Source of the DNA: an uncultured Bacteroidales bacterium
GTDB taxonomy: Bacteria > Bacteroidota > Bacteroidia > Bacteroidales > UBA932
Length of the DNA stretch: 64,000 nucleotides
NCBI GenBank assembly: GCA_947306365.1
Contig: CAMZGD010000002.1
Location: 1 to 64,000 of the forward strand
Reading direction: 5' to 3'
Made by a program: the position numbers and the translations under genes
Shown: in pieces, positions 12,932 to 63,120 of the stretch
How the letters are laid out: each line of letters begins with the position of its first letter
Numbering within the stretch: the first letter of the stretch is position 1
Notes under the pieces: generated by a model
What the model saw: only the letters and a program-made list of their open reading frames with translations
Databases searched by the model: none
Told to the model about the DNA's origin: nothing

Positions 12932-13000
12932 TAAAATTCCAACCTTTTAATGCGGTTTCACAAGTTAGACGGAAGAACCGGTCAAAAGGTTGGAATTTTA
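12932..13000. repeat. Long inverted repeat with 17-bp perfect arms
   Basis: TAAAATTCCAACCTTTT (12932-12948) / AAAAGGTTGGAATTTTA (12984-13000). Confidence 0.9.
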
Positions 13001-21565: not shown

Positions 21566-21650
21566 GCCTTGGTGGTGGAATGGTAGACACGAGGGACTTA
21601 AAATCCCTTGGCCCGAAACGGCCGTGCGGGTTCGAGTCCCGCCCGGGGCA
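21566..21650 (+). tRNA. tRNA-Leu (anticodon TAA)
   Basis: Acceptor GCCTTGG/CCGGGGC, anticodon arm AGGGA-CTTAAAA-TCCCT, long variable arm, T-arm GCGGG-TTCGAGT-CCCGC; CCA not encoded. Confidence 0.95.
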
Positions 21651-21696
21651 CAAAAATAGACCGGCTCGCGAGCCGGTCTATTTTTGTGCCCCGGGC
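21641..21696. terminator. Perfect 56-nt palindrome overlapping the tRNA-Leu 3' end; probable terminator
   Basis: GCCCGGGGCACAAAAATAGACCGGCTCG followed by its exact reverse complement. Confidence 0.9.
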
Positions 21697-23689: not shown

Positions 23690-23824
23690 CTCGAGGCACG
23701 AAAAATAGACCGGCTCGCGAGCCGGTCTATTTTTGTGCCTGAGGCACCTTTTCTACGTGTGGCACAGCCCCCCGAACCCCCTCGGCCTTTGGCCGTCCAC
23801 GCTGGAGGCCTTTTTTGTGGACGG
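23690..23824. repeat. Second copy of tRNA-adjacent palindrome/GC-box/hairpin repeat
   Basis: Near-identical to 21647-21775; core AAAAATAGACCGGCTCGCGAGCCGGTCTATTTTT at 23701-23734. Confidence 0.92.
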
Positions 23825-54087: not shown

Positions 54088-55130
54088 TATTGCGTTTTTC
54101 TAGTCAAAGTTCCGTCGTCGGAGATATCCAGTCCGTACTGGCCGCGGAAATCGGCCTCCGAGAGGCTGCGCATATGCTGCGCCACGCGGTCGGTCGGATC
54201 GAGGCGCGGGCCGGTGCCCTGGGTCTGGATGAAGGAGTGGATGCGGCCGTCCACGAAGCGGCCGTCGCGGGTGATCCGGGCGACCAGCACCGGGGCGTAA
54301 CCGTTTACGCCGGCCAGGTTTACGCCGAAGGTGGTGCAGAAGTTGCCGAGGCTGTAGGCGATGAGCCGGTCGCGGTAGCATTCCACGGCCCGCGTGACGT
54401 GGGGGCCGTGGCCGAACACCAGGTCGGCGCCCAGGTCGACGCACCGGTGGGCGAAGGCCCGGAGGTCGCCGCGGTTCTCGCCGAGATAGGTCTCGGGACC
54501 GTCGGGCAGGTGGGAGAATTTTGCGCCTTCCGCGCCGCCGTGGAAGGTGACGACCAGGATGTCGCATTGCGGCCGCAGGTCGGTGAGGATCCGCGTCACG
54601 GACGCCGTGTCGGTGTGTTTCAAGGTATAGGCGTTGTGTCCGAACGAGCAGACGCCGTAGCGGATGCCGTCCTTTTCGATGACCGCGGATTCGCAGTCGG
54701 GCAGGCCGCTGTAGCGGATTCCCTGGCTGTCGAGCACTTCCTGCGTGCGGAGCAGGCCGTAGGTTCCGAAGTCATTGGTGTGGTTGTTGGCCAGGTTGAG
54801 ATAGTCGAATCCGGCCTCCTTGAGCAGGTGCGCATAGCTCTCGGGCATCCGGAAGGCGTAGTTGTTGGCCTTGCCGGTGTCCTTGGTGCACGCCCCGCCT
54901 TCGCAGATCACGCCTTCCAGGTTTCCGGCCGAGAGGTCTGCGTCGAGAAAGAGCTGCTTCACGTCGGCGAAGATGTCGGCGCCGTCGTTTGCGGGAAGCC
55001 GGACGGTGGGATAGGTGGTGCCCATCATGATGTCGCCGCACATCGCGACGGTGAGCAGCGAATCGGTTTCCTGCGCCGGGGCGGCGGCGCAGCAGAGCGT
55101 CAGGAGGCAGACGGTCAGCAGGCGTTTCAT
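54087..55130 (-). CDS. CapA family protein
   Basis: VAMCGDIMMGTTYP; LANNHTNDFG; FGHGPHVTRAVECY. Confidence 0.92.
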   Translation of the reverse strand: MKRLLTVCLLTLCCAAAPAQETDSLLTVAMCGDIMMGTTYPTVRLPANDGADIFADVKQLFLDADLSAGNLEGVICEGGACTKDTGKANNYAFRMPESYAHLLKEAGFDYLNLANNHTNDFGTYGLLRTQEVLDSQGIRYSGLPDCESAVIEKDGIRYGVCSFGHNAYTLKHTDTASVTRILTDLRPQCDILVVTFHGGAEGAKFSHLPDGPETYLGENRGDLRAFAHRCVDLGADLVFGHGPHVTRAVECYRDRLIAYSLGNFCTTFGVNLAGVNGYAPVLVARITRDGRFVDGRIHSFIQTQGTGPRLDPTDRVAQHMRSLSEADFRGQYGLDISDDGTLTRKTQ

Positions 55131-55996
55131 TGCCGGTTCTTCTTAGGTGCGCAGTAGTGGGTTTTCGCCGGTTCCGTCCGTCGGGCGGGTATTTTCCGGA
55201 TATGGGCGACGACGATCAGCGCAATGCCGGCCAGGATGAACGGGATGCTGAGCAGCTGGCCCATATTGAGGAGCATATTCTCTTCGAAGCCCACCTGCGG
55301 CTCCTTGATGAACTCGATGAGGAAGCGCATGCCGAAGCAGATCAGGAAGAACATGCCGAAGAACCAGCCGCGGTAGCGCTTGTCCAGCCGGTGATTGTAG
55401 TTCCACAGCAGGAGCAGGCCCAGCAGCAGGTAGGTGAGCGCCTCATAGATCTGCGTGGGATGCTTGGGCAGCGTCTCGCCGCGCCGTTCGAAGATGAAGC
55501 CCCACGGCAGGTTGGTGACGTCGCCGTAGATTTCCGAATTGAAGAGGTTGCCCAGGCGGATGAAGCAGCCGGCGAAGGCCACCGCGATTACGAGCCGGTC
55601 GAACACCCACAGCAGGTCGAAGCCGTTCTGCTTGCCGTAACGGTGGACATACCACCAGACGGCCAGCATCACGCCGATGGCGCCGCCGTGCGAAGCCAGC
55701 CCGCCCTTCCAGGGCTTGAAGATCTCCACCCAGTGCTCGCTGGTGAGATAGTAAGATGGCTCATAGAAGAGGCAATGGCCGAGCCGTGCGCCCACGATCG
55801 TGCCGATGAGCAGCGCATAGAGCAGCGGCTCGAGCAGTTTCGTGTCGACGCCCTCGCGCTTGTAGAAGCGGTCGAAGAGCCAGTATCCCAGCGGGAAGCC
55901 GGCCACGAACAGGAGCGAATACCATCGCAGGGTCAGCGGTCCGAGCTTGAAGATGATCGGATCGACGTTCCAGGTAACCGAAAGGAAATCTATCAT
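55127..55996 (-). CDS. lgt: Prolipoprotein diacylglyceryl transferase
   Basis: GGLASHGGAIGVMLA; RLGNLFNSEIYG. Confidence 0.96.
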   Translation of the reverse strand: MIDFLSVTWNVDPIIFKLGPLTLRWYSLLFVAGFPLGYWLFDRFYKREGVDTKLLEPLLYALLIGTIVGARLGHCLFYEPSYYLTSEHWVEIFKPWKGGLASHGGAIGVMLAVWWYVHRYGKQNGFDLLWVFDRLVIAVAFAGCFIRLGNLFNSEIYGDVTNLPWGFIFERRGETLPKHPTQIYEALTYLLLGLLLLWNYNHRLDKRYRGWFFGMFFLICFGMRFLIEFIKEPQVGFEENMLLNMGQLLSIPFILAGIALIVVAHIRKIPARRTEPAKTHYCAPKKNRQ

Positions 55997-56010: not shown

Positions 56011-56135
56011 TGATGATTTGTTACCGTTTCAAGACTACGGCCCCTTTGGGGCCTATCCCTCCCATCGTTCCGATGGGCCCCTCCCACTCACGGCTGCGTG
56101 GGCGCAGACGGTCTTGAAACGGTAACAAATCATCA
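56011..56135. repeat. Large structured inverted repeat, 25-bp perfect arms enclosing three hairpins
   Basis: TGATGATTTGTTACCGTTTCAAGAC (56011-56035) / exact reverse complement (56111-56135); inner GGCCCC-TTT-GGGGCC, CCCATCG-TTC-CGATGGG and CCCAC...GTGGG. Confidence 0.95.
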
Positions 56136-56138
56136 TAA

Positions 56139-57041
56139 TTATCTGATTAATCGTGAAAAAACACTCAGGGGCAATGCCTTGCCGGCGCGGTCGCGCAGCA
56201 CGAGCTCGCCGTAGTCAAGGCTTTCGAACTTCGTGCCGAACGCACTGCGGACCAGCGTGTCGGCCAGGACGGCCGAGTAGCCGTTGGAATAGAGGTTCAG
56301 CACCAGGAAGCTGTTTTCCGGCGCCAGGATGGCAGCACACTGCTGCATCAGTTCGAAGAGGCACTCGTCGAGTTTCCAGCGCTCGCCGTCGGGACCGTGC
56401 CCGTAGGCGGGCGGGTCGAGGATCAGGCCCTGGTAGCGATTTCCGCGGCGGGCTTCCCGCCGGGCGAACTTGAGGGCGTCTTCGATGACCCACCGTATGC
56501 CGTCCAGGCCGCTGAGTTCCATGTTGCCCCGGGCCCAGGTCACCACCTGGCGGACGGCGTCGAGATGCGTCACCTCGGCACCGGCCTTTCGCGCCGCGAG
56601 CGAGGCGGCGCCGGTATAGGCGAAGAGATTGAGCACTTTCGGCGGCGTGGCCTGACGGGCGGCGATGTCGCGGACCGTACGGTAGATGAAATCCCAGTTC
56701 GGCGCCTGTTCGGGGAACACGCCCACGTGCTTGAAGGCTGTCAGGCCGAGCCGCAGGTTGAAGCCCACGGCCGGATAGGCGATCGTCCATTGTTCCTGCA
56801 TCTTGCGGAGCATGTTCCAGGTTCCGCTGTCTTCCTTTCCCGCCTTGCCGAAGCCGGCGCCCGGCTTGAATTCGGTATGCGCCGTCCGCCGCCACTCCTC
56901 GTCGGAGAGCGTCCGGGTCCAGAGGGCTTTCGGTTCGGGCCGGATGGTCACATACGGGCCGAACCGCTCGAGCTTCAGGAAGTCGCCCGAGTCGATCAGC
57001 TCGTAGTCTTTCCACGCAGCAGATGGCTGTTCAATCGTCAT
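56139..57041 (-). CDS. Class I SAM-dependent methyltransferase (RlmI-like)
   Basis: VLNLFAYTGAASLAARKAGAEVTHLDA; LILDPPAYGHGPDGERW. Confidence 0.93.
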   Translation of the reverse strand: MTIEQPSAAWKDYELIDSGDFLKLERFGPYVTIRPEPKALWTRTLSDEEWRRTAHTEFKPGAGFGKAGKEDSGTWNMLRKMQEQWTIAYPAVGFNLRLGLTAFKHVGVFPEQAPNWDFIYRTVRDIAARQATPPKVLNLFAYTGAASLAARKAGAEVTHLDAVRQVVTWARGNMELSGLDGIRWVIEDALKFARREARRGNRYQGLILDPPAYGHGPDGERWKLDECLFELMQQCAAILAPENSFLVLNLYSNGYSAVLADTLVRSAFGTKFESLDYGELVLRDRAGKALPLSVFSRLIR

Positions 57042-63053: not shown

Positions 63054-63120
63054 ATTGTCTGCTTCTATTTCAAAACCGTCTGCGCCCACGCAGCCGTGAG
63101 TGGAAACAGAAGCAGACAAT
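63054..63120. repeat. Inverted repeat with 18-bp arms (one mismatch) around 29-nt core shared with 56084-56112
   Basis: ATTGTCTGCTTCTATTTC / GAAACAGAAGCAGACAAT; core ACCGTCTGCGCCCACGCAGCCGTGAGTGG. Confidence 0.95.

What the first reader, a model, noticed from the sequence alone, without database searches (positions are those of the whole stretch)
56011..56135. 125-nt cloverleaf-like element upstream of lgt with 25-bp perfect arms
The 25-bp arms are exact complements and enclose three further GC-rich hairpins, two with TTT/TTC triloops and one CCCAC/GTGGG stem. It is far larger than a simple terminator and sits between lgt (start 55996) and a methyltransferase stop (56139). Its inner 29 nt recur exactly, inverted, at 63075-63103. 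It could be a structured RNA, a REP/MITE-like element or a protein-binding site.
Basis: partly seen in the sequence, partly recalled or inferred. Interest (0 to 1): 0.75.

Follow-up and report, generated by a model that had tools for sequence, protein, structure and literature searches.

The report
Palindromic repeat with self-matching, site-specific arms
The hairpin upstream of lgt is one copy of an apparently undescribed family of scattered, mobile-looking DNA elements in (mostly ruminant) gut Bacteroidales: the 70-90 nt core is almost the same everywhere, while the ~25-bp arms differ at every site yet always match each other, which makes it a natural record of how DNA replication builds and repairs palindromes.

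Summary
In detail: 56011-56135 has exact 25-bp arms around a hairpin-rich core. It is not a one-off. The genome has 10 exact core copies and about 8 diverged ones; I collected 85 copies from about 20 Bacteroidales MAGs, and a covariance model finds relatives in 11 of 26 genera of the family. The core (short hairpins plus ultraconserved linkers) is constant. The arms are site-specific, self-complementary, mostly 22-32 bp, without a second copy in the genome. Empty orthologous sites (pyrD-pyrF, methyltransferase-lgt, several others) lack core and arms, so this is an insertion. Between orthologous sites arms change on both sides with pairing kept (133 positions vs 40 one-sided), core orientation flips, core stems show almost no one-sided intermediates, and arm mismatches show no sense-strand G-U bias. 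That fits DNA template switching (arm homogenisation, spacer inversion) better than selection on a transcribed RNA. In seven species the element is read in frame inside the signal peptide of a GH2 enzyme, in both orientations. Best reading: a non-autonomous, MITE/RPE-like palindromic element whose arms are made and renewed by template switching. Mobiliser unknown. New variant of a known kind.

The parts
56011..56135 (+). whole palindromic element, copy 1, between the methyltransferase gene and lgt (both on the - strand)
   Evidence: empty in close relatives
56011..56035 (+). left arm, 25 nt: inner TTTCAAGAC is common in this genus, outer ~16 nt are specific to this site
   Evidence: no second copy in the genome
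56039..56053 (+). hairpin H1 GGCCCC-TTT-GGGGCC, covarying between copies
56054..56064 (+). conserved linker TATCCCTCCCA (its end overlaps the H2 stem)
56061..56077 (+). hairpin H2, variable in length and sequence but self-complementary in every family
56075..56111 (+). ultraconserved segment GGGCCCCTCCCACTCACGGCTGCGTGGGCGCAGACGG including H3 (56083-56102)
56111..56135 (+). right arm, exact reverse complement of the left arm
63054..63120 (-). copy 2 in the window: left half of the core deleted, own 18-nt arms (63054-63071 / 63103-63120), upstream of smpB-like gene
55127..55996 (-). lgt, the gene downstream in transcription
56139..57041 (-). SAM-dependent methyltransferase gene upstream in transcription

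Best explanation
The feature is one copy of a dispersed, non-autonomous palindromic element (MITE/RPE-like). SHOWN: a ~70-90 nt core with conserved linkers and hairpins is present at many sites in either orientation, mostly between co-directional genes; close relatives have empty sites; the arms are not part of the conserved sequence but are unique to each site and self-complementary; at orthologous sites both arms change together and the core can be flipped. INFERRED: the core spreads as a DNA element using an unknown mobiliser. Once in place its hairpins bring the two flanks together, and replication template switching copies one flank onto the other in inverted orientation. That builds, and keeps re-perfecting, ~25-bp arms (partly out of native flanking sequence, even codons) and now and then inverts the core. 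The host tolerates it in operon junctions, and where it lies inside an ORF the reading frame is kept open.
For: 10 exact core copies in the genome, 18 with the covariance model; 85 distinct copies in relatives, 75 of 250 family genomes positive. Empty sites without core or arms at pyrD-pyrF, lgt and clade-2 junctions. Arms unique in the genome, mostly 22-32 bp. 133 both-sided changes with the pair kept vs 40 one-sided at orthologous sites; 67 double vs 2 one-sided changes in core stems. No sense G-U excess: 10 G-U, 14 A-C, 19 other. Core orientation flipped between orthologous junctions. One arm holds inverted native flank at L169 and inverted gene-end codons at L001/L022. Precedent for arm homogenisation and spacer inversion by template switching: PMC8604942, PMC8794818.
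Against: No mobiliser found; RAYT-type genes are present but do not track the element. No consistent target-site duplication. Linkers are far more conserved (98.3%) than flanking coding DNA (80%) at orthologous sites, more than expected of dead selfish copies. The narrow arm-length range is not explained by template switching alone, and at L165 and L150 the arms are wholly new sequence. All genomes are draft MAGs.
Confidence: 0.62

Rival explanations
1. A structured RNA element (RNase III processing site, attenuator or mRNA stabiliser) in operon junctions, whose stem is kept by selection on RNA pairing.
For: Very stable fold; co-directional junctions in 71 of 85 copies; covariation in stems.
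Against: Either orientation equally frequent although the linker sequence is conserved on one strand; no G-U excess on the sense strand; almost no one-sided intermediates in core stems; read as protein in the GH2 gene; absent from close relatives at the same junctions.
Confidence: 0.12
2. An actively mobile element whose integration step itself makes the site-specific inverted arms (enzyme-driven inverted copying of the target flank), with repeated independent insertion into favoured junctions instead of vertical descent.
For: Narrow arm length; arms differ completely at the same junction in different species; L169 right arm is an inverted copy of native left flank; near-identical cores.
Against: Close species share arms at orthologous sites; six of seven GH2-site copies share a private H2 variant, i.e. 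descent; no candidate enzyme; arms at L165 are not native.
Confidence: 0.16
3. A chromosomal DNA-binding or architecture site (linkers bound by a host protein), spread and kept because it is useful.
For: Orientation independence with extreme linker conservation.
Against: Copy number from none to about 17 per genome with absence in close relatives; no positional pattern could be tested because contigs are unordered.
Confidence: 0.07

Closest known systems
Rickettsia palindromic elements (RPE)
   Same: ~100-150 nt palindromic dispersed element that can sit in frame inside protein-coding genes; mobiliser unknown (PMC10969869)
   Different: Mostly between genes here; core unrelated by Rfam/collection searches; arms differ at every site. 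A direct sequence comparison with RPE families was not run.
[quoted passage not shown]
   Same: Short, non-coding, dispersed, with inverted repeats and empty sites
   Different: Terminal repeats are not shared between copies; no constant target duplication; no parent transposon found
CGTC- and GTAG-tagged REPs (PMC3733652)
   Same: Palindromic, intergenic; a CGTC precedes a small hairpin on one strand
   Different: Published CGTC units have 8-9 bp stems with AT at the first two positions and a CCA-like tail; ours is a 4-5 bp GC stem, and GTAG follows rather than precedes its hairpin; whole element ~125 nt
Template-switched (quasi)palindromes, e.g. yeast inverted repeats (PMC8604942) and Nematomorpha coding palindromes (PMC6649704)
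   Same: Arm homogenisation, spacer inversion, concerted double changes, palindromes inside coding sequence
   Different: There the palindromes are incidental; here they surround a repeated, conserved, dispersed core

Membership tests
MITE | dispersed short copies with empty orthologous sites | tested here: met
MITE | terminal inverted repeats shared by the family | tested here: not met
   arms unique per site; only in genome G336 are arms near-constant, inside a larger composite repeat
MITE | short target-site duplication | tested here: inconclusive
   no overall signal (p = 0.77); weak in outer flanks (p = 0.03); one clear-looking case, L157
MITE | mobilised by a known transposase | tested here: inconclusive
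   only Y1/RAYT genes tested
Rickettsia palindromic elements | in-frame presence inside proteins | tested here: met
   met at one locus in seven species; most copies are intergenic
Rickettsia palindromic elements | sequence homology to an RPE family | not tested
   no RPE sequences were fetched
CGTC REP | CGTC tag, 8-9 bp stem starting with AT pairs, CCA-like tail | tested here: not met
   sequence at 56083-56111 against the definition in PMC3733652 section 6
GTAG REP with RAYT | GTAG 5' of the hairpin and copies next to a RAYT gene | tested here: not met
   GTAG lies 3' of H1; no core within the RAYT loci searched with the model
Rfam structured RNA | match to a curated family | tested here: not met
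   (only microRNA-precursor models far below their gathering scores)
template-switched palindrome | double changes in arms without one-sided intermediates, and spacer inversion | tested here: met

The most novel reading that the evidence does not exclude
A mobile element whose inverted repeats are not its own: the core directs (by its folded shape, with or without an enzyme) inverted copying of whatever flanks it, so each insertion makes and renews site-specific ~25-bp terminal repeats, while the linkers are kept by a trans-acting recogniser.
Probability: 0.3. Interest if true: 0.85.

Novelty: new variant of a known kind. Interest (0 to 1): 0.62.

Why it matters
Dispersed repeats are normally recognised by their shared ends; this family has shared middles and private ends, so standard repeat finders and RNA covariation tests can misread it. 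It offers about 85 natural replicates for measuring template switching (arm homogenisation, spacer inversion, overwriting of flanks including codons) in bacteria, warns that perfect covariation need not mean a functional RNA, and adds another bacterial lineage, besides Rickettsia, in which a palindromic element is read in frame inside a protein.

Tried and rejected
Phage and plasmid collections: no match. Rfam: none above threshold. Arms taken from elsewhere in the genome: none found. Long target-site duplication suspected from the pyrF/lgt flanks: not supported overall (p = 0.77; outer flanks only, p = 0.03, few cases). RAYT as mobiliser: no correlation with carriers, no core at the RAYT loci. 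Leader-ORF idea (an ATG in the arm opens a frame through the element): sense 33/46 vs antisense 20/46 in clade 1 (p = 0.011) but 5/21 vs 5/21 in clade 2, so not general. L146 and L180, with arms over 61 nt at contig ends, were set aside as probable assembly fold-backs. The composite repeat of G336 was checked for a shared long (transposase-sized) stretch by self-comparison only; nothing shared beyond about 370 nt.

Full report
1. Observation. The 125-nt feature is real and exact: arms 56011-56035 and 56111-56135, hairpins H1 (56039-56053), H2 (56061-56077) and H3 (56083-56102), z = -9.5 against shuffles. The 29-nt repeat at 63075-63103 is real, and that copy has its own, unrelated palindromic arms. 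This was the first clue that core and arms have different histories.

2. Copies. The own genome (2.14 Mb draft) has 10 exact 28-nt cores, five on each strand. Printed with flanks, nine are full length: the inner part is nearly constant, H1 and H2 vary but stay self-complementary, and the outer arms differ at every site while remaining complementary to each other. A covariance model finds 18 members in the genome. Among 198 genomes (own included) the near-exact core occurs in 10, all of the same genus. A scan of GTDB species genomes gave 67 loci, all Bacteroidales/Bacteroidia MAGs, many with sample names that point to rumen, omasum or reticulum. Merging gives 85 distinct copies. With the covariance model R1, 75 of 250 genomes of the family and 11 of 26 genera carry relatives with a recognisably related core and, where inspected, again site-specific complementary arms, commonly 25-31 bp. 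No phage or plasmid match and no Rfam match above threshold.

3. Placement. By codon usage, 71 of 85 copies lie between co-directional genes, with element orientation 38 vs 33 relative to transcription. Arms typically begin shortly after a stop codon and end some 10-25 nt before the next start codon.

4. Empty sites. At pyrD-pyrF, five species carry full copies (one in opposite orientation) and one a remnant; G036 and G023 have overlapping or 3-nt-spaced genes with neither core nor arms. At the lgt junction G000 and G029 are filled and the other relatives inspected are empty, the close ones with only a few nt between the genes. In clade 2, the related genomes G198/G199 give filled/empty pairs at L150, L165, L169 and L157, an arm-only remnant at L174, and a both-filled but inverted pair at L172. 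So the feature is an insertion, not an ancestral terminator. At L169 the right arm contains the reverse complement of the native left flank (GTGTCAGAAGTAC). At L001 the arm contains the neighbouring gene's last codons and stop, and in the orthologous L022 the far arm again follows that species' own version of the gene end. At L165 and L150 the arms are new sequence. No consistent direct target duplication was found, although L157 looks like one.

5. How the arms behave. They have no second copy in the own genome. Lengths are mostly 22-32 bp with a mode of 24-28; the few very short or over-long values come from register problems, deletions or contig ends. Arm sequences are shared only between orthologous sites of close species. 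In 23 orthologous comparisons (some within the same cluster, so not independent), 133 arm positions changed on both sides with the pair intact, 17 on both sides with the pair lost in one species, and 40 on one side, 14 of these from a register shift in L018/L031. In the core-model alignment 67 cells show a double change and only 2 a one-sided change, with 97% of cells paired against 87% in shuffles. Arm mismatches on the sense strand are 10 G-U, 14 A-C and 19 other. Selection on a transcribed hairpin should leave G-U intermediates; a DNA copying process need not. Template switching between inverted repeats is reported to homogenise arms and to invert the spacer (PMC8604942) and to create and maintain hairpins (PMC8794818); both outcomes are seen here, including core flips at orthologous junctions. 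Template switching itself is inferred, not observed.

6. What stays constant. Linkers are 98.3% identical between orthologous sites while flanking coding DNA is 80% identical. In the GH2 cluster, six of seven copies share a private H2 variant (vertical descent) but have different arms and two orientations. So linkers are constrained, homogenised between copies, or the copies are renewed; I cannot separate these. A DNA-level recogniser is the simplest guess because orientation does not matter.

7. Protein read-through. The GH2-type gene (PF02837) starts with a short signal peptide in nine relatives without the element (e.g. MKKSLLSLVLLLALLPAAA). In seven filled species an ATG near the native start position is followed by about 35-45 element-encoded residues, in frame, and then by the hydrophobic signal-peptide core, whichever way round the element lies. 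This resembles Rickettsia palindromic elements, described as in-frame insertions of ~150 bp (PMC10969869). A general leader-ORF role is not supported: clade 1 sense 33/46 vs antisense 20/46, clade 2 5/21 vs 5/21. Translation itself is inferred from the open frame.

8. Relatives in kind. The same junctions in sister species often carry other palindromes with different cores (for example a CATAAAACATGGGAAAAGG-type core in L188, L195, L226, L231, or variants with GAGGGAGGGGCCC in L194, L196, L198, L229), so several such elements use these junctions. The published REP classification does not fit: the CGTC-adjacent stem is too short and GTAG is on the wrong side. RAYT genes are present but unrelated in distribution and position.

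9. Verdict. It works like a MITE/RPE-type dispersed palindromic element; it is not a formal member of MITEs (unshared ends, no constant duplication) nor of CGTC/GTAG REPs, and homology to RPEs was not tested. New variant of a known kind, with an unusual division between a constant middle and private, co-evolving ends. All genomes are MAGs, so errors in single copies are possible, but similar arms recur at orthologous sites in independently assembled genomes.

Noticed in passing
window 21641-21696 and 23701-23734: A perfect 56-bp palindrome directly after a tRNA gene (21566-21650): the terminator-like hairpin's far arm contains an inverted copy of the tRNA 3' end (GCCCGGGGCACA). The hairpin recurs at 23701-23734 within a 124-nt direct repeat (94%) followed by a 268-nt repeat (75%), about 2 kb away. 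It looks like the same arm-extension process acting on an ordinary hairpin.
   Followed up: partly
window 12932-13000: Another palindrome with exact 17-nt arms (TAAAATTCCAACCTTTT) around an unrelated 35-nt core; single copy in the genome.
   Followed up: partly
L188, L195, L224, L225, L226, L231, L211, L222: A second palindromic family with a CATAAAACATGGGAAAAGG-type loop between long site-specific arms, occupying the same orthologous junctions in sister species.
   Followed up: no
L289-L296 (genome G336): Here the core sits with nearly constant arms inside a larger composite repeat with ends CCGGAATGCTGCTCGCAGG / CCTGCGAGCAGCATTCCGG, sometimes with extra palindromic modules; several copies lie at contig ends.
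   Followed up: partly
L297 4408-4653: Two diverged copies in opposite orientation about 80 nt apart inside a long open frame, one with arms of about 43 nt with indels; probably a coding insertion.
   Followed up: no
L041 722-960 (same as L163): A copy whose H2 loop has been replaced by another palindromic repeat (GGGGCAGAGCCCC type): nested palindromes.
   Followed up: no
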